From: Thiohalospira halophila DSM 15071
Lineage (GTDB): Bacteria; Pseudomonadota; Gammaproteobacteria; Thiohalospirales; Thiohalospiraceae
Reading direction: 5' to 3'
DNA: 59,198 nt
Assembly (NCBI RefSeq): GCF_900112605.1
Contig: NZ_FOMJ01000005.1
Location: forward strand, 1 to 59,198
The stretch's first letter is position 1; each line of letters begins with the position of its first letter. A model generated the notes under the pieces. It ran no database searches and was not told the origin of the DNA. It was given only the letters and a program-made list of their open reading frames with translations. The position numbers were made by a program, and so were the translations under genes. This document shows, piece by piece, positions 759 to 34,554 of this stretch.

Positions 759-1982
<1,224 letters not shown>

Positions 1983-1986
<4 letters not shown>

Positions 1987-2687
1987 GTTTCGAGCCGTCG
2001 CACCATCCACATGCCGCAACCGAAGGCGCGGCTGCGGCCGATACCCTCTTCCAGGGTCTGGCGGAAGCGCTCCGGTTCCACCACTTCCAGTTGGCCCTCG
2101 AAGTCGATGGAGCTGAACCGGATCTCGCCGCCCTTCCGCCGGTAGGCATGCTGGCGATAGCCCGTGGTTTGCGGTGCAACCGGCAGTCGATAGCCGTGAC
2201 GCTCGGAACGTTCCGGATCACCAAGCCATTCCCGAGCCGCTGTCTCCATCCGTTCGCGAATGGTGAGCGAGTCCTCGACCCCCTCTTCGCGAGCGGCCTT
2301 CTTGGCGTCCATGAGGACGTCATGCCGACGGGAACGACGCCGCCCCTCTTCCTTACGTGCTACCACCGGGTTGGCCCGTAGCTTGAAGGCGAGCTTCTGG
2401 CCGACCTCCAGCTGCGGGGTGAATTCCTTGCTCTCACAATTCAGCAGGCCCGGCACGGCCGTGGGCGCGAGCCGGGACAGGACATAGAAGAGCGGCATGC
2501 CGCGAGGTGTTCCGTCGACCGGTGTCTCCTTTTCCAGCTCCTGCCGGAAGAGGAAGGGCCGCTCTTCCGCCTCGGGGAAGAGCCGCCAGAGGAGCTGATG
2601 GTTCCCGTAGGCATTCCCTTCCATGAGCCGCTGAAGGGACTGGGAATCCAGCCCCTCCGTGGCCACTCGAACTCGGCTGAGATACAT
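1983..2687 (-). CDS. cas6e: Cas6e crRNA endonuclease (Cse3/CasE)
   Basis: Cuts pre-crRNA below the repeat hairpin and stays on the crRNA 3' handle as a Cascade subunit. The 234-residue product begins MYLSRVRV and carries the YGNHQLLWRLF segment, whose histidine (H30) is at the position of the catalytic His of Cas6e. A C-terminal glycine-rich GIGRSRAFGCGM motif is typical of RAMP proteins. It overlaps cas5e by 1 nt and cas1 by 4 nt, so the three are probably translationally coupled. Confidence 0.95.
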
Positions 2688-3421
2688 CAGGCGTCCTCCC
2701 GGGTCTGGTGCCAGTGTTCCGCTCGGGGGCCGAACTGCCAGCGACCGCGATGCAGGGGTTCGTCGTAGGGGTGGCGGGTCTCCTGCGGCTGGATGTCACC
2801 ACCCTCCCCTTCCCAGGCGTAGGCGACTTCGGCACCGACTCGTAGAAGGCGACGCTCATAGTCTTCCCCGTGCTCGGTGAGAGCCGGAAAGACCGTATCC
2901 AGCGCCGACCGGAAACCCGCTGCCTCCACAATCCGGGGTGCCAGCGGCGCCGCCGGCGGGCAGGCCCTGCGGCCGAGGGCCAGCGGAAAGCGGGGCCGCT
3001 CCAGGGCCGCCTTCAGATCCGCCAGCCCCCAGTCCGTTCCGGCAGGGGCCGGGATGGCGACCTTCCAGTATCCGTCACACCGGTAGTCACGGGTCGAGAG
3101 GATGGTATTGAGCCGTTCCCGGGGGCCCGCCAGCTCCTCACGGCGGGTAAACCGGCGGACCTTGCGCTCCCGAGACGGCACCTGCGCGGTGTGATAATCC
3201 TGCAGGAGCGTACCCGGGCTGACCTGCTTGATGCCAAAGCGAAGCGCCGAACCCAGGGAGGCGAGCTGCTCTTCATCCGTGCGCGGGATGCCCTGGGCGG
3301 CGGCCAGCAGCCCCAGGAGCGCCGACCGGCCGGGATGGGTCGCCGTTCGACGGATCTCCCCGGTGGCCGGCACGCCCCAGCTGGCCAGGGGTCCGTAGAG
3401 CTGGAAGACGAGATAGTCCAT
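2687..3421 (-). CDS. cas5e: Cas5e Cascade subunit (CasD)
   Basis: RAMP-fold subunit that caps the 5' handle of crRNA in Cascade. The product has 244 residues and opens MDYLVFQLYGPLASWGVPATGEIR, matching the N-terminal family signature (L.GP..SWG....G..R), followed by a TATHPGRSALLGLLAAA segment. The start codon is 11 nt from the cas7e stop and the stop overlaps the cas6e start. Length and order match canonical type I-E systems. Confidence 0.95.
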   Translation of the reverse strand: MDYLVFQLYGPLASWGVPATGEIRRTATHPGRSALLGLLAAAQGIPRTDEEQLASLGSALRFGIKQVSPGTLLQDYHTAQVPSRERKVRRFTRREELAGPRERLNTILSTRDYRCDGYWKVAIPAPAGTDWGLADLKAALERPRFPLALGRRACPPAAPLAPRIVEAAGFRSALDTVFPALTEHGEDYERRLLRVGAEVAYAWEGEGGDIQPQETRHPYDEPLHRGRWQFGPRAEHWHQTREDA

Positions 3422-3432
3422 GCCTCGTCTCC

Positions 3433-4470
3433 TCAGCCGCCGGCCACGAAACGCTTGAGCTCATCCAGGCTTCCCTGGCCCTTCAGGACGTTCAGGGTAT
3501 AGGTCTCATCCGCGCAGGGGCCGTAGACGTTGTCGAAGTTCTCGGCCTGCTGCTCCAGGGCGTTCACCGAATCCTCGCCCTGATCATTGCCCTGGACCGG
3601 TTTCAGGAAAGAAACGGAGAGGGAGCGCGGTTGTTGCGCGCCCTTCTCGGCGCGGACGTAGGAGGCGTAGGCGCGGGAACCGAAACTGTTCTGCTTGCCA
3701 CGGGGGGCGACCTTCACCGCTGCCTCGGCAAGGGCGCCGATGGCCTTGTCGGCCAGTTCTTCATCGCCGCCCAGATTCTGCACCAGCTGGTCGCGGTCGA
3801 TGCAGAGGTAGCTGTAGAAGAGGCCGGCGGCGAAGCCGTTCTCGCCGATGTGGCCGGCGCCCATGTCTTCCTCGCCGCTGTTGAGGTCATCAACGGCCGT
3901 GAAGTAGTCGTCCTCCACCACCACACGGTGGGTCGTGATGGCGTGGGCAACCTGACAGGCGGCCTCCACGTTGTAGCCGGGATCCGCGGCGAGCATGCGA
4001 CCGAAAAGGCCAATGTCCGCCGCCGCGGGATTGTGCCGCAGCAGCTTCAGCTCCTCCTCGGTGGGCTCACGCTGTTCCCGGATCAGCGTCTCGGTGAGTT
4101 CATCCACCGCCTGGCGCTCCTCGGGGCTGATATGGGCCAGCTGCTCGATGTGCAGGCCGTCCTTCTGAAGTTTGCCGAACACCCCCGCGATCTTCCCGGC
4201 CCATTCGGTGGCCTGCTTCTCCTTGATGCCCCCCTGGGTCAGGCGCTCCTGGATCTCCGGACCGAGTCGCTTGGTCCGGGTGCCCAGGTGATCGCCCAGG
4301 GCCTCCTGGAAGACGTCGGAGACGCGCCAGTTGCGCTTGAGGCTCTGCGAGGAAACGCGCAACCGCTCGGCACCGCCCATGGTGGCGGTCTTGGGCCGGC
4401 CCAGGTCGTCCCGGTTGAGGTTGGCCGGGGGATACGAGGTCAGCATGTGGAGCTGGATAAAGGTGCTCAT
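3433..4470 (-). CDS. cas7e: Cas7e Cascade backbone (Cse4/CasC)
   Basis: Forms the six-copy helical backbone that holds the crRNA spacer in Cascade. The 345-residue protein begins MSTFIQLHMLTSYPPANLNRDDLGRPKTA, with the G-A-x-R-x-R-V-S-S-Q-S-L-K-R block (around residues 32-45) diagnostic of Cse4. The C-terminal part has the expected G...NSFGSRAYASYVR segment. A 36-nt gap separates it from cse2, where the other upstream cas genes are overlapping or closer. Confidence 0.96.
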   Translation of the reverse strand: MSTFIQLHMLTSYPPANLNRDDLGRPKTATMGGAERLRVSSQSLKRNWRVSDVFQEALGDHLGTRTKRLGPEIQERLTQGGIKEKQATEWAGKIAGVFGKLQKDGLHIEQLAHISPEERQAVDELTETLIREQREPTEEELKLLRHNPAAADIGLFGRMLAADPGYNVEAACQVAHAITTHRVVVEDDYFTAVDDLNSGEEDMGAGHIGENGFAAGLFYSYLCIDRDQLVQNLGGDEELADKAIGALAEAAVKVAPRGKQNSFGSRAYASYVRAEKGAQQPRSLSVSFLKPVQGNDQGEDSVNALEQQAENFDNVYGPCADETYTLNVLKGQGSLDELKRFVAGG

Positions 4471-4506
4471 TGGACTACTCCCTTGTCGGATATCGGTTTT
4501 CGGTAC

Positions 4507-5121
4507 TTAGCCGGTTTGGCCGGCAGGCTGATAGCGGGCGAGGCCACTGAAATAGGCATCGGCCCAGCGGACGGCCAGACGGTGGTCGGGGCGTGCGGCG
4601 AACTGGCCGTTCTTTTCCCGATGCCAGAGGAGGCAATCGTCTGCCACGGAACGCACGTCCACCTTGCCGCCGATGAGATGGATGGCCCGGCGGACCCGCC
4701 GGATGAATTCATCCAGATCCCGGCTGCGCAGGAGCTGCTGGAAGCGCAGCTCGCTCACACGGGGGGTATGGCTGCCGTGGGGCTCACGCTCCTTCGCCAT
4801 GGCGCCCGCAAAGGTCAGATCCGGCACGTGCTCCGAAACCTCGGCCAGGGCCAGGGCGACTCCGCCCCAGGCCCGCATGTCCCAGGTGGTTTGCCTTTTC
4901 TGAGGCAGCCCCAGCCACAGGTGGCGAAAGCCGTCGGTGAGCAGGGCATCATCCGGCCCGGTGGAGCGCCGCAGGACGGCACGCGCTCCGCTGGGCAGGG
5001 CCGGCGCCTGGGCACTCGCCTCCCCATTGAGCCGGGTCCACCAGTCCGCGATCCCTCGGGCTACACCCTCCTCCCCCTCGTAATCCCGCAGGACCCGGGG
5101 CTGATACCATTCTTCGCTCAT
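4507..5121 (-). CDS. cse2: Cse2 small Cascade subunit (CasB)
   Basis: Helical dimeric subunit that stabilises the displaced strand and the R-loop in Cascade. The 204-residue product fits the family in size, with basic and aromatic positions such as WWTRLNGEASA, AVLRRS, and the C-terminal VRRAIHLIGGKVDVRSVADDCLLWH segment. The family is poorly conserved, so the call also rests on its place between cse1 and cas7e. Its ATG overlaps the cse1 stop by 4 nt. Confidence 0.93.
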   Translation of the reverse strand: MSEEWYQPRVLRDYEGEEGVARGIADWWTRLNGEASAQAPALPSGARAVLRRSTGPDDALLTDGFRHLWLGLPQKRQTTWDMRAWGGVALALAEVSEHVPDLTFAGAMAKEREPHGSHTPRVSELRFQQLLRSRDLDEFIRRVRRAIHLIGGKVDVRSVADDCLLWHREKNGQFAARPDHRLAVRWADAYFSGLARYQPAGQTG

Positions 5122-6716
5122 ACGACTGCCTCCTGTTGCATCTGTTGGCGCAGCGCCTTCATCTCCTTGCCGCTCCTCAACCAGAAGCGCAGGCCGTTGC
5201 GCGCCGCAATCACCCGTTTCAGATCCATGGCCTCTTCGTCCCCCGCCAGTGCCAGCGACTCGAAGACCCCGTTCGCGGCCCGGTCGATGGCGCTGACCCA
5301 GCGTTGCGCGACCTCGGCGGGCAGGACCGTGACGCCCGACTCGATGGCCTGCGCCAGCTCGGACAGACAGGTGTAGAAGTCCGCCGTGGTCGCCTCCCAG
5401 AAGCGGTGCCGGATGAAGTCGAAATCCCCCTTGGCATCCTTGGGCCGGGAGAACCAGGCCTGTTTGACGGCATCCTGTGTCCGCCGGGCCCCACGGTCCG
5501 CGGCCTGGTCCAGCTGGCGGACCCAGCTCAGGAAGAGGTCAGTGGATTCCGGCGGGATGGCGACAAGCGGCATCTCGGTGCTGTACCAGCCCCTCGGCTT
5601 GTTCTGCTTGAGGTCGTAACCGAAGAGCCAGAGCCGTGGCTGTTTTTCCCCGAGCAGCAGGGGCTGCTTGGTCTTCAGGTAGTCCTGGACCACCAGTGCC
5701 GGCAGATTTCCCTGCTCGGGGTCCGCCAGGGTCAGGGACTCCCAGTGCCGGTAGCCCAGACCACCCGGTTGGCCCTTCTGGGAGAATGGCGGCTGATCGG
5801 GCTTCTTGGGGTCGAAGCGGTAGGGCGTAAGCGGGTGTCGGAACGGGCCGTCGTAGTTGTACCCAAGGTTCGCCATCCGCATGGAACGGAAGACCTGTTC
5901 GGCCTCGCGCCCGCAGACCTGGCAGGTTCCCGGTCCCTCCGGTTCATCCAGGTGAATGCGGTTGGGCATGGCCCAGAAGAGATGCAGCGGATGAACATCC
6001 TCCGGCGTCGTGACGAGGGTGCTGGAGCCCTTTTCACTGGTGCGGGTCGCGGCCAGCCAGGGGAAGACCCGCCAGTCTCTCGGGTCCGGATCGGAGTACC
6101 GGAAGTCGCTATCCCGGGTCAGGAGGTTCAGGAGGAGCTTGTGCCAGATGGGAGCATCGGACTCCCGCGGAAGGACGAGTGTCGTCAACGGCCCGCCCCC
6201 ACGGATACCCACCCGGTACCCCGTACCACCCGCCGGGCCCGTCGCCTGGAAGTTGTAGAGCGCCGCCGCGGTGCACTCGGGGCACATCTCTTCACCCATG
6301 CCACGGTGGACGAAGTGGTCGGTGTTCTGCTTGAGCCCCTGCTCGCCGGGGGCCTCGATCAACAGGGAAGCGATGGAGGCCTGTCGTGCCCCTTCCAGCG
6401 GATCCCGGTCCTGAAGGAATCGGGCGCCATCCCCCTCAAGCTCGAAGGCGTCCTGCCAGGTCTTTAGCCGGGACTCCAGTTCCTCCCGTTCCGGCGGCCG
6501 CTCCCAGAGCTGTAGCCACTCCTTGCGATTGGCCGGCGCCATGGCCGTCTGCAACAGGCCGATGAGGAATTGCCAGCCGGCCCCGTTGAAGTCGGCCCGG
6601 GGGAAATCGAGATCCACCAGCTCGGGGTCCACGACGGCCGCAGGCGGTGCGTAGATGCGTTCGCCATCCCTCCGGCGGAAGGGCAGCCAGGGGTCGTTAA
6701 TCAGGTTCATCGGCAC
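5118..6716 (-). CDS. cse1: Cse1/Cas8e large Cascade subunit (CasA)
   Basis: Large subunit that reads the PAM and recruits Cas3. The 532-residue protein begins MPMNLINDPWLPFRRRDGE, the N-terminal N-L-I-x-D-P-W-L-P signature of CasA; a second ATG two codons in is an equally good start. A cysteine pair pattern (CPEC around residues 138-145 and CQVC...near 265) suggests a structural zinc site. It follows cas3 by 34 nt and overlaps cse2. Confidence 0.96.
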   Translation of the reverse strand: MPMNLINDPWLPFRRRDGERIYAPPAAVVDPELVDLDFPRADFNGAGWQFLIGLLQTAMAPANRKEWLQLWERPPEREELESRLKTWQDAFELEGDGARFLQDRDPLEGARQASIASLLIEAPGEQGLKQNTDHFVHRGMGEEMCPECTAAALYNFQATGPAGGTGYRVGIRGGGPLTTLVLPRESDAPIWHKLLLNLLTRDSDFRYSDPDPRDWRVFPWLAATRTSEKGSSTLVTTPEDVHPLHLFWAMPNRIHLDEPEGPGTCQVCGREAEQVFRSMRMANLGYNYDGPFRHPLTPYRFDPKKPDQPPFSQKGQPGGLGYRHWESLTLADPEQGNLPALVVQDYLKTKQPLLLGEKQPRLWLFGYDLKQNKPRGWYSTEMPLVAIPPESTDLFLSWVRQLDQAADRGARRTQDAVKQAWFSRPKDAKGDFDFIRHRFWEATTADFYTCLSELAQAIESGVTVLPAEVAQRWVSAIDRAANGVFESLALAGDEEAMDLKRVIAARNGLRFWLRSGKEMKALRQQMQQEAVV

Positions 6717-6750
6717 GTCCTCTCTGCTTCTTGCTTCCCATCACGATCAT

Positions 6751-9453
6751 TCAACCTTTTCGGGGTATCACTGCGCCCAAGTGCGTGTCGTATCGGACAG
6801 CGCTCTCGGTGGTCTCCACGAGCCAGAAACGGGCCCTGCGCAGGCCTGGCTGTTCTTCCCGGAGGGCGCGGGCCGGGCCTTCCAGCTCGGGAGGGAGTTC
6901 GGGGAGGCGGTTCGCCAGGCTCTGGCGCAGGTTCAGGGTGCTCATCGCCCAGGCGTTCCGGGCATCGGAGTGCCAGGGCCGGATATGGCCGTCCGGGGTC
7001 TGCTGGATCAGCACCACGGAATAGGTGGGCTCGTCGGCGAGACGGGTTCCGATCTCCTGGTCATCACCCCAGCCTGCTCCATCCATGGCCAGTGCATACC
7101 CGCGCTCCAGCTCCAGGGCGTTGAAGCGGGCGCTGGAAGCCGCCACGCGCTGCTCGGCCCAGTGCTCGGCATCCGCTTCCAGAAGGCCTTCAGGCACCTC
7201 CGGCTCGTCGCCGTAGACGGCCTCCAGCAATACCCGGGCTCGCTCCGGGAGCCGGATGGCCGCCTCCTCCCGCAGCACCTTCATGGTTCGCCAGAGGGCA
7301 GCCGCGTCCCGGTAGACCGCTGAGGTCCCTGGCAACGGCTCTCGCACCCAGCGCGGCGGGGGCGGCTCCGTCCACTCCGGGGCGAGGATCCGGAATTCCG
7401 GGGCCGGACGGCCATCCGGCTGACCGGCCTCCCCGGGATTGCCCTCGGCATCCCGCACATGGCGATGGAGGCGGCCGGCGCGCTGGATAAGCAGATCCAC
7501 CGGGGCCAGGTCGCTCACCAGTACGTCGAAATCCAGATCCAGGCTCTGCTCCACCACCTGGGTCGCGATGAGGATGCGACCGGCCCGTTCGGCGCTCCCG
7601 GATTCCTTGCCGAAGGTCTTCAGGGCCTCGTCCTCGATCCGCTGCCGGTCCGCCATGGTGAAGCGGGCGTGGAAGAGCATCGCCCGCTCCGGCTCGGTCA
7701 GCTCGGCACGCAGGGCCTCGTAGGACCGAATGGCGTCGTCCACCGTGTTGCGGATCCAGCAGGCGCACTGCCCCGCCCGCGCCGCCGCAAGGATCGCCGC
7801 GTGCGCCTCGGCCTCCTCATGGACAAAGGCCACGGGCAGGTCGCGCCGGCTTTCCGGGCGCGCAGCTACCTCGCTCTCCTCCAGACCGCGGTCATGGACG
7901 TGGGTCGCAAGGGGAAACCCGGCGGAAACCGGTTCCGTCTCGGCCGTCTGTCGGCCCTCCTGCCAGGCCTCGATGAGGTCTCGTCGCAGATTCCGGGGCA
8001 GGGTCGCCGTGAGCAGAATGGCGCTGCCGCCCTGGCGCGCGTGGTCGGTGAGGAGGGTCCGCAGGAGACGGTCGGTATAGATGTCGTAGGCGTGGACCTC
8101 GTCGACGACCAGTACCTTGTCCGCCAGCCCCAGCAGGCGCAGCGCCTGATGGCGACGCGGCAGCACGCCGAGCAGGGCCTGGTCGATGGTTCCAACACCC
8201 ACCTCTGCCAGGAGCGCGGTCTTCCGGCTGTCCGCCAGCCAGGCCCGGCACTCGGCGCCGCCGGTGGGATCCTCACGGGCATAATCCGGATCGGCGTTGG
8301 GCTCCGGCACCACGGAGGCCGTGAACGACTCCTCCAGGTGGCGCGCGCCGTGGGCCAGGATCAGGGAGGGATGACTATCTGACGGGAACAGGGCACGGTA
8401 ATGGCCGCCCAGCCTCTGGTACATGGCGTTGGAGGTCGCCATCGTCGGCAGGCCGAAATAGAGGCCCCGGCCCTGCCCTTCAGCAAGGAGGCGATGGGCC
8501 AGCGTTAACGCCGCCTCGGTCTTCCCGGAACCGGTTATGTCCTCCAGCAGAAAGAGCTGGGCGCCGTCGTCGAGGGCTACCGTCTCGGCCCAGGACTGAA
8601 GGGGCGTCTGCGAAAAGCCGAAGGCATCCTGGAATCCGGGGAAGGAAACCGCCTTCGGTACATCCAGAAGGCCGGTCTGCTTCAGAACCTCGTCGGCCCC
8701 CGGCAGCGCCCGTTGTTCCCAGTACTCCTCCAGCGACATCGGTTCGGCACAGTAGGGGAAATACTGCGCATTGGAGCCGAGCCAGTCCGCCAGGGTCGCC
8801 AGCCCCGCCAGCTGCCAGGTACGCGGCGCCAGAACCCGCGTTCGCCACTCTTCATCCGTCAGGAACTGCGTGGGCCAGGGGGAGCCCCACAATCCTTCAA
8901 CGGCCTCCACAAAGGCCCTGGCCGCGGATTGATCGGCCTCGAGGAAATCCAGCTGAAGGGGGTCCGGCAGTCGTGCCGTGGGCTGACCGTGGTGGCCGAA
9001 GAAGCAGCCCAGCCAAAGGTTCAGCCCATCCGAGAGATCGAGATCTGCGACCGCATCGATGCCCTCCCGCACGGGATGCCCGGGGAACAGTGCCTCACGC
9101 CAGAGCTCAGCCCCGAGGGTGTCATGGCGACGCCGGCCACCGTCGTACAGTAATCCGGGCTGCGGCGGGACGAGATTACAGCCGGCCGGAGCCGCCTGGC
9201 CCTGGAAGGAACGCGCGAACTTTCCCAGGTCGTGGAGCGTGAGCGAGAAGACGAAAAACCGCCGGAACTCCTCCACCGTGAATCCCAGTCCGGAGGCCAG
9301 TCGCGATGCCCGTTCCGGATCACGGGCCAGCAGCGTCTCGCCCACCGCCGCTACGTCGAGGGAGTGGTAAGGCAGCAGATGGCAGGGCGCCTGAACGGCG
9401 TCCTCCGATTTTGCCTTCCCCCAGTAGCGCAGGTAGCTCGGTACCTCTTCCAA
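6751..9453 (-). CDS. cas3: Cas3 HD nuclease-helicase
   Basis: Single-strand nuclease and 3'-5' helicase that degrades target DNA after Cascade binding. The HD domain is N-terminal (H30 in PYHSLDVAAV; H84-D85 in TLHDLGKFA). Superfamily 2 helicase motifs follow: DITGSGKTEAAL (Walker A), DEVHAYD (DEAH-type box), LTATLP and QRAGRLHRH. I place the start at TTG 9453 because AGAGGAG lies 8 nt upstream and the protein then begins LEEVPSYLRYWGK, aligning with the short N-terminus known for Cas3. A longer frame from ATG 9537 adds 28 arginine-rich, unconserved residues. The length is about 900 residues. Confidence 0.96.
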   Translation of the reverse strand: MEEVPSYLRYWGKAKSEDAVQAPCHLLPYHSLDVAAVGETLLARDPERASRLASGLGFTVEEFRRFFVFSLTLHDLGKFARSFQGQAAPAGCNLVPPQPGLLYDGGRRRHDTLGAELWREALFPGHPVREGIDAVADLDLSDGLNLWLGCFFGHHGQPTARLPDPLQLDFLEADQSAARAFVEAVEGLWGSPWPTQFLTDEEWRTRVLAPRTWQLAGLATLADWLGSNAQYFPYCAEPMSLEEYWEQRALPGADEVLKQTGLLDVPKAVSFPGFQDAFGFSQTPLQSWAETVALDDGAQLFLLEDITGSGKTEAALTLAHRLLAEGQGRGLYFGLPTMATSNAMYQRLGGHYRALFPSDSHPSLILAHGARHLEESFTASVVPEPNADPDYAREDPTGGAECRAWLADSRKTALLAEVGVGTIDQALLGVLPRRHQALRLLGLADKVLVVDEVHAYDIYTDRLLRTLLTDHARQGGSAILLTATLPRNLRRDLIEAWQEGRQTAETEPVSAGFPLATHVHDRGLEESEVAARPESRRDLPVAFVHEEAEAHAAILAAARAGQCACWIRNTVDDAIRSYEALRAELTEPERAMLFHARFTMADRQRIEDEALKTFGKESGSAERAGRILIATQVVEQSLDLDFDVLVSDLAPVDLLIQRAGRLHRHVRDAEGNPGEAGQPDGRPAPEFRILAPEWTEPPPPRWVREPLPGTSAVYRDAAALWRTMKVLREEAAIRLPERARVLLEAVYGDEPEVPEGLLEADAEHWAEQRVAASSARFNALELERGYALAMDGAGWGDDQEIGTRLADEPTYSVVLIQQTPDGHIRPWHSDARNAWAMSTLNLRQSLANRLPELPPELEGPARALREEQPGLRRARFWLVETTESAVRYDTHLGAVIPRKG

Positions 9454-9550
9454 ATCCCTTGCTCCTCTTTCCCGGGGCTCCACCCCGTTATCTCGTTCCA
9501 CCCTGCCACCCCCCCGTCGCAGGGGATGCGACAGCATTGCAGTCGGGTAT

Positions 9551-10528
9551 TCATTCCTCCGCCCCGTATCTCGCCGCCGCCTCCTGCAACCGTTCGGCGG
9601 CGGCCTGGCGCAGCTCCGGCGGGTGGGTGATGGTGCAGTCGGGCCCCCAGCGGCCGGCCTCCATGAGGAGTTCGGTGGGGTTGCTGTAGGGGAGGTGGCG
9701 ACGCAGGCCGCCCCCCTCGGGGCGCTCGTCCACCTGTTCGGGGTGCCACTGTTCGTCGGCCACCCAGCGGGCGGCGGTGGGGCTGAATTCCAGGGTGGCG
9801 GTCCCCCGGGCGGGGCCGCCGAAGATGCCGAAGCCGGCCTCCAGGTGTTCGTCGAGCCGGCTGGCCTCCACGGGTTGGGCGGGTTCGTCGGTCTCTCGCG
9901 GCTGCTGGATCCGGTCGATGGCGAAGTTGCGCAGGGCCTCCGCCCGCTCGCAGAAGGCGATGAGGTACCAGTTGTCGCGGTAGTGGAGCAGGCGCTGGTG
10001 GTGGATCCGGCGGGTCTCGGCCACCTCTCGCGCCCGGCCGCGGTAGCCGATGGTCAGGACCCGGCCGGCCAGGGTGGCGCCGGCCACGGCGGCGAAGACG
10101 TCCCGGTCCACGACTCGGCGTGCCTGGGGCTGGAGGACCACGCGCTCGCGGACGGTCTCCGGGTCGTGGCCGGTCTGGCGCAGGAGGTCGCCGATGCGCC
10201 GCTGCAACGGGTCCAGGTGGGGAGCGAGGATGCCCGGCTCCACCGCCTCCAGCAGGCGCTCGGCGGCCAGGAGGGCGTAGAGCTCCGATTCATTGAACCA
10301 GAGGCCGGGGAGTTCATAGTCGTCGGCGTCGGGATCGTAGCGGACGTGGCCGTCCCCCGGCTGTTCCAGGGGCGCGCCCAGCCGATCGCGCAGGGTCTCC
10401 AGGTCGCGGTAGACCGTGGCGCGGCTGACCTCCAGCTCCGCCGCCAGGCCATCCACGTGGAGGATAGCGCCGGTGCGGCGCAGGCGCTGGTGGAGGTGGT
10501 AGAGGCGTTCGACCTGGGACCGCTTCAC
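9551..10528 (-). CDS. HTH-WYL transcriptional regulator
   Basis: The 325-residue protein has an N-terminal winged helix-turn-helix of DeoR/YafY type (residues 1-60, AAELEVSRATVYRDLETLRDRL). A WYL domain follows (N-W-Y-L at about 186-189, with conserved RIHHQRLLHYR before and RNFAIDRI after) and a C-terminal WCX-like extension. WYL regulators often sit beside CRISPR or other defence genes and are thought to sense nucleic-acid ligands. This one is on the same strand as cas3, 97 nt upstream, so it is a candidate regulator of the cas operon. GGTGG/CCACC arms at 10541-10558 lie just upstream of its start and could be an autoregulatory site. Function in this strain is inferred. Confidence 0.88.
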   Translation of the reverse strand: MKRSQVERLYHLHQRLRRTGAILHVDGLAAELEVSRATVYRDLETLRDRLGAPLEQPGDGHVRYDPDADDYELPGLWFNESELYALLAAERLLEAVEPGILAPHLDPLQRRIGDLLRQTGHDPETVRERVVLQPQARRVVDRDVFAAVAGATLAGRVLTIGYRGRAREVAETRRIHHQRLLHYRDNWYLIAFCERAEALRNFAIDRIQQPRETDEPAQPVEASRLDEHLEAGFGIFGGPARGTATLEFSPTAARWVADEQWHPEQVDERPEGGGLRRHLPYSNPTELLMEAGRWGPDCTITHPPELRQAAAERLQEAAARYGAEE

Positions 10529-15876: not shown

Positions 15877-16521
15877 ATGGACCCGACCCGCGCCACGACC
15901 CGCATCCAGCTGCGGACCTATGTCTACATGGACTCGCTCCAGCCGCAGCTGGCGCAGTATCTGGCCACGGTCTCCCAGGGCTTTCTGCCCGTCCCGGGGG
16001 ACTCCTGCCTGTGGGTGGAGATCTCTCCCGGCATGGCGGTCCACCGCCTCACCGACGTCGCCCTCAAGGCGACCCGGGTCCATCTCTCCCAGCAGGTGGT
16101 GGAGCGCGAGTACGGCTCCATGGTCATCCACCACCGGGACCAGAGCGACGTGCTGGAGGCGGGCAATTCGGTCCTCGGCCACATGGGGGCGGAGCCCGGC
16201 GACCGCACCCCCTGCCAGATCGCCTGGCAGGAGGTGATCCGCGGCATGACGCCGGACCACACCACCCTCATCAACCGCCAGGACCGCAAGGGCTCCATGA
16301 TCCTCCCGGAGGAGAGCATGTTCATCCTGGAGACGGAGCCTGCGGGCTACATCATCTACGCCGCCAACCAGGCGGAGAAGGCGGCCCGGGTGAAGCTCAT
16401 CGACGTCCGCGCGGTGGGCGCCTTCGGCCGCCTGACCATGTCCGGCAGCGAGGCCGACGTGGACGAGGCGGCCCACGCGGCGATCCGCGCCATCCAGGGC
16501 CTGAACCCATCCAGGGCCTGA
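15877..16521 (+). CDS. csoS1D: CsoS1D tandem-BMC carboxysome shell protein
   Basis: 214 residues made of two bacterial-microcompartment domains (about 10-110 and 115-212). It assembles as a trimer (pseudohexamer) in the alpha-carboxysome shell with a large gated pore. The signature [38 protein letters not shown] and [24 protein letters not shown] strongly resemble CsoS1D. E76 and R77 (VVEREYG) correspond to the Glu/Arg pair that closes the pore. It is shorter than cyanobacterial CsoS1D, lacking most of the N-terminal extension. It lies on the opposite strand from, and beyond, the main cso operon. Its ribosome-binding site is weak (GGGAGG, more distant than usual). Confidence 0.92.
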
Positions 16522-16537
16522 ACAGGGGGGTGACACC

Positions 16538-17098
16538 ATGCACCGCCAGGACCTGCTCCAGCGCCTGACGAGCCACCGCACCGACTTCCCCGACGAGGCG
16601 ACCTTCACCCGCCGGGCCCGGGACTTCGTGGCCGGCCACGCCGACTGCTTCCACCGCGAACTCATGCCGCGGCACGTCACCGCCTCCACCTGGGTGGTGA
16701 ACCCGGCCCGGGACCACGCCCTCCTCCTCCACCACGGCAAGCACAACCGCTGGTTCCAGCCGGGTGGCCACGCCGATGGCGACCCCGACGTGCTGGCGGT
16801 GGCCCTGCGCGAGGTCCAGGAGGAGACCGGGCTCCACCCCGATGCCATCCGGCTGGTGGACGACTGGGTCTTCGACGTGGACATCCACACCATCCCCGAT
16901 GACCCCCACGCCCCGCCCCACGAGCACATCGATGTACGCTTCCTGGTGGAGGTGGACGATACGCTGCCGGTCCCCGGCAACGAGGAGTCCCACGAGGTCC
17001 GCTGGGTGCCGCTGGAGGCGATCTCGCGCTACAACAATGGCCGCTCCACGTGGCGGATGGTGGAGAAGACCCGGCGGCTGCGCCACCGACCGACCTGA
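16538..17098 (+). CDS. Nudix hydrolase
   Basis: 186 residues. The Nudix box is GGHADGDPDVLAVALREVQE followed by ETGL, keeping REVQEETGL (the metal-binding helix) but with the first Glu of the consensus replaced. WVVNPARDHALLLHHGKHNRWFQPGGH precedes it. Such enzymes cleave nucleoside diphosphates linked to another group; the substrate is unknown. It follows csoS1D by 16 nt, so the two are probably co-transcribed, but a carboxysome role is not established. The bidirectional terminator at 17141-17177 ends the unit. Confidence 0.87.
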   Translation: MHRQDLLQRLTSHRTDFPDEATFTRRARDFVAGHADCFHRELMPRHVTASTWVVNPARDHALLLHHGKHNRWFQPGGHADGDPDVLAVALREVQEETGLHPDAIRLVDDWVFDVDIHTIPDDPHAPPHEHIDVRFLVEVDDTLPVPGNEESHEVRWVPLEAISRYNNGRSTWRMVEKTRRLRHRPT

Positions 17099-27569: not shown

Positions 27570-29795
27570 CTAGCCCCGGGCCCCGCCGGAGTAGGTCACG
27601 GCGGCACCCTTCTCGGTGCTGCCACTACTCCCGGTCACGGGGCTCTCGGGCAGCGGGACCTCCTCGTTGCGCTTGGGGTCCCGCTGCATGGGCATGACGC
27701 TGCCCGCCGGACCGCGCCAACTGGGGTTGCGCCGGGCGGGCGTCCCCTCGGTCCCGGTCACCCGCTCACCGCGGTCCCAGTCGTCGCCGGTGATGGAGGG
27801 GCCGCTGCCCGAACCCTCACCCGTGACGCGACCCTCCGGGGCAGGCTGGGCCTGCTGCGGGGTGGGATCCGGCGTGTAGCTGAAGCCGGAGCGGCCCTCG
27901 TGGCGCGCGGTCTCGGTGCCGGTCACCTTGCCCTCGGCCATGCCGAAGGGGCCCGTAATGGAACCGCCGCCCTCGTACCGGCTCCCGGTCACCGCCGAGG
28001 AGCGCCGCGGCGCGTGGGCCGCCGGCGGCTCGGCCGTAGGGGTCGGGGCCACCGAGCACTCCAGGCTCTGGGGGAAATCGGGGCTGGCCGGCGTCGCCGG
28101 CTCTGCGGCACACGCCTCGGCGTACTGCTGCTGACCCACGTAGGGCGTGCCTGTGGGGGTCTGGCAGGCGCCGTCGTCGGCCCCGGTCATGTCGCCGTTG
28201 AGCCCCGGCTGCTGGCCGGTGATGTTGTTCGCCGGCGTGGCCTGGCGACGGGGCTGCCGGATGGCGGCCTCCTCCTGGTCCCCCGGGGCACAGTAGTTGC
28301 GGTACTCCTCGGCCCCCATGTAGGGCGTGCCGGTGACGGCCTGGCAGGTACCCGGTTCGTTGCCGGTCACCCGACCGTTACGGCCGGACCGCGCGCCGGA
28401 GACGGCCAGGCCGCTACCGGTGGCTGACACCGGCGTGGCCAGACCCTGATGGGGTGGCTCCACGCCGCAGGTCTCCTGGTACTGCTCCCGGCCGACGTAG
28501 TCGTTCCCGGTAACCGAGCGGCAGCTCCCCGGCTCATCGCCGGTGACCCGCTCACTGCGCCCCACGCGGGAGCCGGTGATGCCGCCACCCCGCAGGGTCG
28601 TGGCCTGCTCCACCTTGGGCGGAACCTGGGCCTGCCCCTGGGCATCCCGGCGGAGGTACTGCGTGCCGGTCACCGACCGGCCCACGCCGCGTTCGTCCCC
28701 GGTGACCCGCTCGGAGCGGCCCGGGAAGTCCCCGGTGACCCGCTCGCCCGCCACGGTACTGTCTTCCATGGTGAGCGCCGGGCCCGCCGCTGGCGTGGTC
28801 CCGCACCAGCCCTGGAACTGCTCGGTCCCCAGGTACTCGGTCCCGGTGACCGACTGGCAGGTGCCCGGCTCATTGCCGGTGACCCGCTCGCCGCGGCCGA
28901 CCTCGTTGCCGGTAACCCGACCACCGTGGCCGGTCTGGCTGACGCCGGAGCGCATGGGCGCCGGGGCCGGCTCGGTCCGGCAGAGGTCCTGGAAGAGATC
29001 GGCCGAGAAATACTCGGTGCCGGTGACGCTGGAGCAGGCACCCGCCTCCCAGCCGGTCATGTCGGAGTCGGCCGAAACCTGGGTCCCGGTGACCTCCTGG
29101 CCGTGGCTGGTCTCGCTGGCACCCACCTTCCAGGGAGCATCGGACGAACCACCACGGCGCGCCTCGATCATCTTACGGCGGCGGCTGGTGTGGTCCTCGC
29201 CGCTGCGTCCCCGGGCGCCGTTGCGGGCCTGGTCGGCCCGGGCCCGGCGCGCGATCTCACGGCCGGACATATCCGGGTTCGACTGGCGCGCCACCTGGGC
29301 GGCCGAGAGGCAGCCACTGGTCTCGGCGGCCTTGCCGCGATCGGCCAGGGCACGCCGCCGCGCCCGGGCCTGGAGGTGACCGGAGGACTTCTCGCAGTGC
29401 CCACCGCGCCGGCGACGACTGGTGCCGGGCGGGCAGCTCTCGCCCTCCGGACCGGTGGCCTCCACCGCGGACGGCTCGGCCGGTGCCTCCTCGGCAGCGG
29501 GCTCGGGCTCCTCGCGGCGGCTCTCCACACGGCTGCGGTCGGTCTTCTTCAGCGCCGCCTTGCCCTGATGGGCCATGGCACGGCGCCGTTCCCGGGCCGA
29601 GCTGCGCGCATCGCCGCCGCCCGCACCACCGCCCTGGCCGCCCCCGCTACCGGAGGCGCTGCCGCCGACGACACCACCCGAGGTCGAGGCGCTGCCGGAG
29701 CCCTTGAGCTCCTTCTTGCCACCTCGTGCCTGTGCGGCGCGCCGGGCCCGGGCGGCTTCCCGGGCACTACGCTCTGTCGTTTCCACCCTGGCCAT
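27570..29795 (-). CDS. csoS2: CsoS2 carboxysome assembly scaffold
   Basis: 741-residue disordered scaffold linking RuBisCO to the shell. The N-terminal region (1-200) has four basic repeats (ARARRAAQARGGK, RERRRAMAHQGKAALK, RARRRALADRGKAA, IARRARADQARNG) that bind RuBisCO. The middle region has six repeats built on VTGTEY/VTGNE with paired cysteines (for example GTCQSVTGTEYLGTEQFQGW followed by C). The C-terminal region has further VTG/ITG motifs and ends in the shell-anchoring segment VTGSSGSTEKGAAVTYSGG. One middle repeat (GVGRSVTGTQYL) lacks its cysteines. Some relatives make a short form by ribosomal frameshifting; I could not identify such a site here. Confidence 0.96.
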   Translation of the reverse strand: MARVETTERSAREAARARRAAQARGGKKELKGSGSASTSGGVVGGSASGSGGGQGGGAGGGDARSSARERRRAMAHQGKAALKKTDRSRVESRREEPEPAAEEAPAEPSAVEATGPEGESCPPGTSRRRRGGHCEKSSGHLQARARRRALADRGKAAETSGCLSAAQVARQSNPDMSGREIARRARADQARNGARGRSGEDHTSRRRKMIEARRGGSSDAPWKVGASETSHGQEVTGTQVSADSDMTGWEAGACSSVTGTEYFSADLFQDLCRTEPAPAPMRSGVSQTGHGGRVTGNEVGRGERVTGNEPGTCQSVTGTEYLGTEQFQGWCGTTPAAGPALTMEDSTVAGERVTGDFPGRSERVTGDERGVGRSVTGTQYLRRDAQGQAQVPPKVEQATTLRGGGITGSRVGRSERVTGDEPGSCRSVTGNDYVGREQYQETCGVEPPHQGLATPVSATGSGLAVSGARSGRNGRVTGNEPGTCQAVTGTPYMGAEEYRNYCAPGDQEEAAIRQPRRQATPANNITGQQPGLNGDMTGADDGACQTPTGTPYVGQQQYAEACAAEPATPASPDFPQSLECSVAPTPTAEPPAAHAPRRSSAVTGSRYEGGGSITGPFGMAEGKVTGTETARHEGRSGFSYTPDPTPQQAQPAPEGRVTGEGSGSGPSITGDDWDRGERVTGTEGTPARRNPSWRGPAGSVMPMQRDPKRNEEVPLPESPVTGSSGSTEKGAAVTYSGGARG

Positions 29796-31690: not shown

Positions 31691-31736
31691 TCCATGGATA
31701 GAGACCAATCGATTAATTCAATGAAGTCCATAGAGG
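31691..31736 (-). promoter_or_regulatory. cbbL promoter region with CbbR-like operator
   Basis: ATAGAGACCAATCGATT (31698-31714) lies about 60 bp before the cbbL start and recurs, slightly altered, before dabB (23446-23460) and between cbbR and the pseudo-aldolase (32860-32875). TCCATGGATAGAG (31691-31703) and TCCATAGAGG (31727-31736) flank it as half-repeats. This looks like a multi-part LysR-type binding region. The surrounding gap (31638-31833) holds no gene. Confidence 0.65.
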
Positions 31737-32838: not shown

Positions 32839-32859
32839 CGACTAAAACCTATCCTGTGA

Positions 32860-32880
32860 ATAGAAACAATTGATTTCTAT
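32860..32880. promoter_or_regulatory. Palindromic CbbR-like operator in the cbbR/aldolase-like gap
   Basis: ATAGAAA (32860-32866) and TTTCTAT (32874-32880) are perfect 7-bp arms around CAATTGA, the T-N11-A type dyad bound by LysR proteins. The left part (ATAGAAACAATTGATT) matches the cbbL-site motif. It starts 22 nt before the cbbR start and ends 72 nt before the plus-strand gene, so it could serve both autoregulation and divergent activation. Confidence 0.65.
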
Positions 32881-32951
32881 TAATAGATCAAGCGAACCAG
32901 ACTTTACAACCCACAGGAGGTTTTCATCGTCCCCCGCACGGGAGGAGACAG

Positions 32952-34103
32952 ATGCCCGCGGTCGAACTCGGTGACATGCTTGGCCACGCCCGCTGCCACG
33001 GCTACGCGGTGGGGGCCTTTACCGTTCCGGGGCTGGAGGTCGCGCGCGGGGTCCTGGCCGCCGCCGAGCGCGCCCGCGCACCGGTAATCCTCACGGTGGA
33101 CCCCGGCACCGACGAGGAGGCGGCGCTGGAGAGTCTCCTCGCGGGGCTGGTGACGGCGGTGGACGCGGCCTCGGTCCCGGCCGCGATCCTCTACGGACCC
33201 GTATCCGACGCCCGGGCCGTCCGCCGGGCTGCCCGGCTCGGCTGCGGCGGCGTCCTCGCCCGCCCCCCTGAGGGCGAATTCACCGCCACCGTGGCCGCCT
33301 TGCGCGAGCAGGTGGCCGAGGCCAGTACCTGCCGACTCACCGTCATCGCCTGTCCCCAACCCGACGAGAGCGGCCGGACCCCCGCCGCCGAGGCCACCGC
33401 GCTCTGCCAGCGGACCGGCAGCCACGCCCTGGAGGTGGCCATCACGGGTGCCCCGGGCGAGGGACGGCGCGCACGCACCGATTATTCCCGCCTGCGCCAG
33501 CTCGGCGAGGCCACGGAGTGCCCGCTGGTCGTCCCCGCCGACGGTACCGACACCGACGACCGGATCCGCCGCATGGTCGCCCAGGGGGCGGCCCAGATCG
33601 GCTTCTCCGAGGGAGTCTCCCGCACCGCGGCGGAGGCCCTGCGGGCAACGGCCCCGGCCTACGAGCACCTCGGCCGTGCCGTCCGTGACGCCGTCAGCGC
33701 CTGGAGCGGTGAGCGCATGCGCACCATGGGCTCGGCGGGCCGTGCCGCCGAGGTCCAGTCGCGCTGCCGGGAACGGCGCGCGGTGGAGGAGCTCCTCATC
33801 CAGGATGCCGCGCCCTCCGAGGCCCTGGAGCAGACCGTCCGCGCCGGTGAGGCCACCCTCCGGGCCGCCCCCGGGGTCCGGGCGGTCTACGGCTACCGGG
33901 TCGGCGGGGCCCAGGGGGAGTCGCAGGTGGTCTGGCGCGTGGAGCTGTGCCATCCGGCGGCCCGCGAGGAGTTCGGCGCCCACCTGCGACACCTCCCGGG
34001 GGAGCGCATCCGCCATCTCCCGCTGGAGCCGGCGGGCGCCTGCGCGCAGGCGCAGGCCACCGAGGAGGCCCCCGACCACGTGCTGGCCGGCAGTAATGGC
34101 TGA
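32952..34103 (+). CDS. Class II aldolase-like protein lacking catalytic residues
   Basis: 383 residues behind GGGAGGAG. The N-terminal about 285 residues follow class II fructose-bisphosphate aldolase from end to end (LGDMLGHARCHGYAVGAFTV ... LEVARGVLAAAERARAPVIL ... RMRTMGSAGRAAEVQSRC). The key blocks are replaced: HQDHG by LYGPVS, EGELG by VIACPQ, the GTSHG His by ITGAPG, HGSS by PADGTD, and NIDTD by GFSEG. The Zn-binding His residues and the catalytic Asp are therefore gone. A C-terminal domain of about 90 residues (VRAGEATLRAAPGVRAVYGY onward) is not part of aldolases. It is divergent from cbbR across an operator. It is probably a non-catalytic or repurposed protein linked to CO2 fixation; its function is unknown. 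Confidence 0.8.
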   Translation: MPAVELGDMLGHARCHGYAVGAFTVPGLEVARGVLAAAERARAPVILTVDPGTDEEAALESLLAGLVTAVDAASVPAAILYGPVSDARAVRRAARLGCGGVLARPPEGEFTATVAALREQVAEASTCRLTVIACPQPDESGRTPAAEATALCQRTGSHALEVAITGAPGEGRRARTDYSRLRQLGEATECPLVVPADGTDTDDRIRRMVAQGAAQIGFSEGVSRTAAEALRATAPAYEHLGRAVRDAVSAWSGERMRTMGSAGRAAEVQSRCRERRAVEELLIQDAAPSEALEQTVRAGEATLRAAPGVRAVYGYRVGGAQGESQVVWRVELCHPAAREEFGAHLRHLPGERIRHLPLEPAGACAQAQATEEAPDHVLAGSNG

Positions 34104-34554
34104 GGCCGACAGCGGCCCGCTCTCGCCCGCCCTGGTGGTGGCCGGGCGCGGCCTGGCGGTGGACGAGGTCTGCCACCGGGTCAATCCGCTGCTGGAGGCC
34201 CTCTGTGGCCACGGGACCGGGCCCACGGACCTGCTGGGCATCGTGCGGGTGCCGGACCCGGCGGCCCTGGTCGGCGGCCACAACCTCCCGCTGACCAGCC
34301 TCAGCGGCGAGGAGGCCCTGTGGTACCTCTGCCACCTGGCGCCCTCCGTGGGGACCGGCGACCGCGCCATCCTCAGCGTGACCCTGAGCCTGCTGCCCCG
34401 GGACGATCTGCACTTCGCCCCGGCACTGGAGAGCCGCGGCCGGGGACCGGACGAGTGCGACTGGCTCCTCGCCCGCCTGCACCACGGCCTCGGCGAGCGG
34501 CTGGATCCGCCGGTCCGATGGGACCGGCGACGCTGCCGCCTCCTCCCCGAATAG
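34096..34554 (+). CDS. Hypothetical protein coupled to the aldolase-like gene
   Basis: 152 residues starting at ATG 34096, overlapping the upstream stop by 8 nt, so the pair is probably translationally coupled. No family is recognised. It is acidic and soluble with no signal or membrane segment; visible patterns are DLLGIVRVPDPAALVGGHNL and ECDWLLARLHHGLGERLDPP. It ends at a strong terminator (34564-34594), closing the two-gene unit. Confidence 0.7.
   Translation: MAEADSGPLSPALVVAGRGLAVDEVCHRVNPLLEALCGHGTGPTDLLGIVRVPDPAALVGGHNLPLTSLSGEEALWYLCHLAPSVGTGDRAILSVTLSLLPRDDLHFAPALESRGRGPDECDWLLARLHHGLGERLDPPVRWDRRRCRLLPE

What the first reader, a model, noticed from the sequence alone, without database searches (positions are those of the whole stretch)
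32952..34554. Catalytically dead class II aldolase with a novel C-terminal domain, paired with an orphan gene beside cbbR
The fold aligns with class II fructose-bisphosphate aldolase along its full barrel, yet each metal- and substrate-binding block is replaced (HQDHG to LYGPVS, EGELG to VIACPQ, GTSHG to ITGAPG, HGSS to PADGTD, NIDTD to GFSEG). A C-terminal domain of about 90 residues is added, and a 152-residue unknown protein is translationally coupled. Together with the CbbR-like operator, this suggests a repurposed sugar-bisphosphate sensor or scaffold for CO2 fixation. The function is inference.
Basis: partly seen in the sequence, partly recalled or inferred. Interest (0 to 1): 0.72.

Follow-up and report, generated by a model that had tools for sequence, protein, structure and literature searches.

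The report
Dead aldolase kept beside carboxysome genes
Next to the genes for a CO2-fixing microcompartment, this bacterium keeps a protein built like a sugar-cutting enzyme that has lost its cutting residues; related bacteria repeatedly show the same loss while still conserving the protein, so it probably does a different, non-chemical job in CO2 fixation.

Summary
The gene at 32952-34103 is real. It encodes a class II aldolase barrel whose metal and substrate residues are almost all replaced. Two details of the finding are wrong. The C-terminal domain is a diverged Dabb domain (PF07876), not a novel one. The 152-residue partner is not an orphan: two other genomes carry the same unit, cbbR | dead aldolase-Dabb | partner, beside alpha-carboxysome genes.

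The protein is a degenerate member of a widespread, essentially unstudied gammaproteobacterial aldolase-Dabb fusion family. Its genes usually follow the RuBisCO activase genes (cbbQ-cbbO or cbbX), mostly with an intact active site. The active site has been lost several times. Loss is concentrated beside carboxysome genes (11 of 15 loci, against 7 of 110 elsewhere), but that link is not shown to be phylogenetically independent. Dead relatives still evolve under purifying selection (dN/dS 0.11-0.30).

Best reading: a CbbR-controlled pseudoenzyme acting by binding, probably an accessory to RuBisCO or carboxysome function. A sugar-bisphosphate sensor is less likely because most phosphate-site residues are gone too. 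Its partner is unknown. Selection on the window copy itself could not be measured, because its nearest relatives are only 35-39% identical.

The parts
32952..34103 (+). Pseudo-aldolase gene: class II aldolase barrel plus Dabb domain, 383 residues
   Evidence: ORF; PF01116 76.3 bits; family profile; model pLDDT 85.5
32952..33746 (+). Barrel, residues 1-265; replaced motifs at residues 80-85 (LYGPVS), 131-136 (VIACPQ), 164-169 (ITGAPG), 195-200 (PADGTD), 217-221 (GFSEG)
   Evidence: Family alignment and residue count
33774..34031 (+). Diverged Dabb domain, about residues 275-360; the tail 361-383 is predicted disordered
   Evidence: Dabb in 15 of 17 relatives; window C-terminus hits their profile E 1.4e-14; strand-helix-strand-strand-helix-strand in the model
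34096..34554 (+). Partner gene, 152 residues, overlaps the pseudo-aldolase gene by 8 bases
   Evidence: Homologues in L118 and L120 in the same position; codon usage like neighbouring genes
32859..32881 (.). Perfect inverted repeat AATAGAAA-N7-TTTCTATT, candidate CbbR site
   Evidence: 0 in 100 shuffles; core shared with the cbbL promoter
31698..31714 (.). Second copy of the core ATAGARAC(N)AATYGATT, upstream of cbbL
   Evidence: similar element in the cbbL promoters of L118 and L120
31834..32838 (-). cbbR, LysR-type regulator, divergent from the pseudo-aldolase gene
   Evidence: PF00126 and PF03466
30222..31637 (-). cbbL, first gene of the alpha-carboxysome operon (cbbS, csoS2, csoSCA, csoS4A, csoS4B, csoS1 x2 follow, down to about 24600)
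   Evidence: ORFs; csoS2 by PF12288 at 28110-29369

Best explanation
The gene encodes a pseudoenzyme descended from a class II aldolase-Dabb fusion that is normally encoded at the end of RuBisCO-activase operons (cbbLSQO or cbbLS-cbbX). The barrel has lost its metal, catalytic and most phosphate-binding residues but is predicted to keep its fold, its N-terminal segment and the GxAGRAAEV hinge. Proposed working: it is made from a CbbR-controlled promoter together with the RuBisCO/carboxysome operon and acts by binding a protein partner (RuBisCO, an activase, another aldolase, or its co-encoded partner at 34096-34554) as an accessory or regulatory subunit, not by cutting sugar phosphates. Shown: loss of the residues, family membership, the homologous locus elsewhere, purifying selection in dead relatives. 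Predicted: the retained fold. Inferred: CbbR control, co-expression, partner binding, role in CO2 fixation.
For: Seven of eight key residues lost. A canonical aldolase elsewhere in the genome covers the reaction. The family is tied to RuBisCO, activase and carbon-concentrating genes. The same divergent cbbR | dead fusion | partner unit beside csoS genes in G131 and G245. Dead copies evolve at dN/dS 0.20-0.28 and 0.11-0.14 in Acidithiobacillus, no higher than intact pairs. Loss concentrated in carboxysome loci. A shared motif in front of cbbL and of this gene. Gene-like codon usage.
Against: No direct evidence of expression, binding or phenotype. The window copy sits on a very long branch with skewed composition and has no relative close enough for dN/dS. 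The Dabb part of L118-L120 is weakly constrained (pN/pS 0.61). Intact copies also occur beside carboxysome genes (L101, L158, L164, L173). Carboxysome linkage changes only four times on the tree, so the association may reflect shared ancestry.
Confidence: 0.55

Rival explanations
1. Decaying gene: once a canonical aldolase and carboxysomes made the fusion dispensable it began to erode; the window copy is a late stage with little or no function.
For: Very long branch and GC-driven composition; higher dN/dS in L118-L120 than in intact pairs; a frameshift splits the L122 copy, which may also be an assembly error; the Dabb domain of the window copy has diverged past Pfam detection.
Against: Open reading frame with gene-like codon usage; conserved two-gene unit in another family; constraint unrelaxed in degenerate Acidithiobacillus copies; confident predicted fold.
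Confidence: 0.25
2. Ligand sensor: the barrel no longer cuts but still binds a sugar phosphate (FBP, SBP or RuBP) and reports it to CbbR or RuBisCO.
For: Barrel fold predicted intact; gene divergent from cbbR with a likely CbbR site; a class II aldolase regulates transcription in Francisella (PMC5636795).
Against: Most positions that hold the phosphates and the metal are replaced and not conserved among dead copies.
Confidence: 0.1
3. New chemistry: the barrel has a new set of catalytic residues and a new reaction.
For: TIM barrels often change chemistry (general knowledge); selection persists in dead relatives.
Against: Few polar residues at the strand ends are shared by the window copy, L118 and L120; lineages lose different residues in different ways.
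Confidence: 0.08

Closest known systems
'cbbA' of the Acidithiobacillus ferrooxidans cbb1 operon (AFE_1676, ACK80290.1; PMC2942843, PMC6458275)
   Same: Listed there with Pfam01116 plus Pfam07876, i.e. the same fusion; co-transcribed with cbbL1-S1, carboxysome and cbbQ1-O1 genes; CbbR-controlled operon
   Different: Annotated as a working fructose-bisphosphate aldolase. Its own residues were not read here; copies in A. ferruginosus and A. ferrianus keep 3-4 of 8 key residues, the window copy keeps 1. The window gene has its own divergent promoter and a partner gene
Class II ketose-bisphosphate aldolases (FbaA, GatY/KbaY, YdjI; TIGR00167, PF01116)
   Same: Barrel fold and sequence relationship
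   Different: Metal, catalytic and phosphate residues replaced; Dabb domain added; far below every curated NCBIfam cut-off
Fructose-bisphosphate aldolase acting as a transcription regulator in Francisella (PMC5636795)
   Same: A class II aldolase with a role beyond metabolism
   Different: Described in its title and abstract as a metabolic enzyme with an added role (paper not read further); here the active site itself is gone
Dabb (stress-responsive A/B barrel) domain proteins, PF07876
   Same: C-terminal domain of the family
   Different: Fused to an aldolase barrel; in the window copy too diverged for Pfam

Membership tests
Class II aldolase (active enzyme) | Barrel homologous to PF01116 | tested here: met
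   76.3 bits, cut-off 25.5; fold match
Class II aldolase (active enzyme) | Catalytic Asp and divalent-metal ligands (His, Glu, His, His) | tested here: not met
   All replaced or deleted
Class II aldolase (active enzyme) | Phosphate-binding glycines and NxDT/KINxxT strand | tested here: not met
   One glycine kept, the rest replaced
Class II aldolase (active enzyme) | Aldol cleavage activity | not testable with these tools
   Needs purified protein
Aldolase-Dabb fusion family of cbb operons | Aldolase barrel followed by a Dabb domain with the GxAGRAAEV hinge | tested here: met
   Full-length profile match, C-terminal E 1.4e-14, hinge GSAGRAAEV present
Aldolase-Dabb fusion family of cbb operons | Gene linked to RuBisCO, activase or carbon-concentrating genes | tested here: met
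   Beside cbbR, cbbL and csoS genes
Pseudoenzyme under selection | Dead site with purifying selection | tested here: inconclusive
   Met in dead relatives; not measurable for the window copy, only codon usage
CbbR regulon | CbbR binds the promoter | not testable with these tools
   Only sequence evidence

The most novel reading that the evidence does not exclude
The aldolase-Dabb protein of cbb operons has a conserved structural or regulatory role in RuBisCO/carboxysome biology that does not depend on catalysis, which is why its active site can be lost repeatedly while selection on the protein continues; the window's two-gene unit is a dedicated, fully non-catalytic carboxysome accessory.
Probability: 0.4. 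Interest if true: 0.75.

Novelty: new variant of a known kind. Interest (0 to 1): 0.56.

Why it matters
Published annotation of an Acidithiobacillus carboxysome operon counts this family as a Calvin-cycle aldolase, yet close Acidithiobacillus relatives and this genome have lost catalytic residues. If the protein is a non-catalytic accessory, an overlooked component of RuBisCO-activase and alpha-carboxysome operons is waiting for a function; a 2026 review of alpha-carboxysomes does not mention an aldolase (PMC12918739). The Acidithiobacillus contrast (intact in A. sulfuriphilus, degenerate in A. ferrianus and A. ferruginosus) makes the question directly testable.

Tried and rejected
Partner as a true orphan: rejected, two homologues in conserved position. 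Novel C-terminal domain: rejected, Dabb. Strain-specific pseudogene: not supported. Peptide-pattern search with the window protein alone in genome contigs: nothing found. Structure of the partner: low confidence (pLDDT 62), no PDB match at E<=0.001. Independent-pairs test of carboxysome linkage against loss: no power, few changes of linkage. The 99/96 clade of six carboxysome-linked dead proteins was not recovered with support once columns around the active site were dropped, so a single old origin is unproven. Two scripts failed on coding slips and were rerun (the Fisher value cited was printed before the failure); the display step failed after its numbers were printed. The first attempt to align relatives took some loci on the wrong strand and was redone. 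cbbL in the codon table was read out of frame and is ignored. The threshold for 'dead' (at most 4 of 8 residues) was chosen after seeing the first sample and then applied unchanged to the second.

Full report
What is there. The ORF at 32952-34103(+) encodes 383 residues. Residues 5-264 match Pfam's class II aldolase family (76.3 bits against a cut-off of 25.5). An AlphaFold2 model built from a 15-sequence alignment has mean pLDDT 85.5 and superposes best on class II aldolases such as YdjI (6ofu, TM 0.92 by target length). Of eight catalytic, metal or phosphate positions one glycine remains. The genome carries an ordinary class II aldolase elsewhere on the same contig (C5:99035-100003), so the aldolase reaction is covered.

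The C-terminal domain is not new. The C-termini of 15 of 17 relatives hit the Dabb domain (PF07876, best E 2.7e-13). The window's own C-terminus hits the profile of those relatives (E 1.4e-14) and is predicted as strand-helix-strand-strand-helix-strand, the order expected of a Dabb domain from general knowledge of the fold. It is simply too diverged for Pfam.

A family in RuBisCO operons. The fusion occurs in 63 of 369 sampled genomes of the class (a few of these are weak matches without the barrel) and rarely elsewhere in the phylum. Its gene usually follows cbbLSQO, cbbMQO or cbbLS-cbbX; other copies sit beside cbbR, Dab or SbtA-SbtB genes or in alpha-carboxysome loci. Most copies keep the active-site residues, though a large group has Gln in place of one metal His. 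The family is almost unremarked: the A. ferrooxidans cbb1 operon lists 'cbbA' with both Pfam domains as a fructose-bisphosphate aldolase, co-transcribed with RuBisCO, carboxysome and activase genes (PMC2942843). That operon is CbbR-controlled and its transcripts fall at high CO2 (PMC6458275). Within the library searched, I found no paper that discusses the fusion or its loss of residues.

The two-gene unit exists elsewhere. Two genomes of another family (G131 and G245; loci L118 and L120) have csoSCA, csoS2, cbbS, cbbL and cbbR on one strand and, divergently, a dead aldolase-Dabb gene followed by an ORF of about 171-184 codons, depending on the start chosen. That ORF aligns with the window's 152-residue protein 7.5 and 5.8 standard deviations above shuffled sequence, sharing a GxExxWYxCxLA segment. 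A profile of the three finds no other convincing member in 369 genomes (one further weak match, G318, E 5e-4, has a stop codon inside). In a mixture-model tree the window protein groups with L118 and L120 (97/84); this support is lost when columns round the active site are removed, so the shared gene order and partner are the firmer evidence.

Repeated loss under selection. At least six changes of active-site state are forced by well-supported branches and nine by the best tree. Dead copies remain constrained: dN/dS 0.28 (L118-L120) and 0.20 (L036-L123), against 0.08-0.17 in intact pairs; a third pair, L161-L188, gives 0.30. The cleanest case is Acidithiobacillus: A. sulfuriphilus (L158) is intact, while A. 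ferruginosus, A. ferrianus and a related genome (L177, L192, L185) keep 3-4 of 8 residues, yet their dN/dS is 0.11-0.14. The window copy cannot be tested this way, because its best relatives are only 35-39% identical. Its codon usage is like that of neighbouring genes, but its composition and long branch suggest it has drifted further than the others.

Where loss happens. With cso genes in the fetched locus, 11 of 15 copies have lost at least half of the residues, against 7 of 110 without (Fisher 1.9e-8); the two samples agree separately (about 1e-4 each). Caveats: carboxysome linkage changes only four times on the tree, the independent-pairs test has no power, and intact carboxysome-linked copies exist (L101, L158, L164, L173). 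Extending the distance adds two partly degenerate copies (L116, L119) and two intact ones (L046, L103).

Regulation. The 113-base gap between cbbR and the pseudo-aldolase gene holds a perfect inverted repeat AATAGAAA-N7-TTTCTATT. Its core, ATAGARAC(N)AATYGATT, occurs twice in the window and nowhere in shuffles: here and upstream of cbbL; the pattern was written after seeing both sites, so the shuffle count overstates its significance. The gap resembles that of L118 (alignment score 17 against a maximum of 13 in 1000 shuffles) and less clearly L120 (13 against a maximum of 14), and the cbbL promoters of L118 and L120 carry a similar element. This fits CbbR control but does not show binding.

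Interpretation. The best reading is a pseudoenzyme that now acts by binding, descended from an activase-operon aldolase. Residues kept among dead carboxysome copies lie in the N-terminal segment, the first two strand-helix units and the barrel-Dabb hinge, not in the active site. A sugar-phosphate sensor in the old pocket is less likely because most residues that hold the sugar phosphates are gone. As pure speculation, intact members might clear RuBisCO-inhibiting sugar phosphates such as xylulose-1,5-bisphosphate, given their place next to activase genes; nothing here tests it.

Noticed in passing
15877-17098 (+): A BMC-domain protein (best NCBIfam match CcmP, below its cut-off) followed by a NUDIX hydrolase gene; the same pair recurs near Dab or aldolase-Dabb genes in L101 and L116.
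   Followed up: partly
1060-10528 (-): Looks by eye like a type I CRISPR-Cas operon with a WYL-type regulator gene; no family search was run on it.
   Followed up: no
L048:6574-8744: G047 carries two divergent degenerate aldolase-Dabb genes side by side between cbbL and dabA; one lacks the Dabb domain.
   Followed up: partly
L122:5808-6961: The aldolase-Dabb copy of G216 is split by a frameshift, real or an assembly error.
   Followed up: partly
L037, L041, L085, L113 and about 25 other loci: A large group of otherwise intact family members has GTVQG in place of GTVHG, i.e. Gln for a metal-binding His, which may mean altered metal use.
   Followed up: no
L036, L122, L123: In one family the degenerate aldolase-Dabb gene directly follows SbtA and SbtB bicarbonate-transport genes (identified by eye) within an alpha-carboxysome locus.
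   Followed up: no
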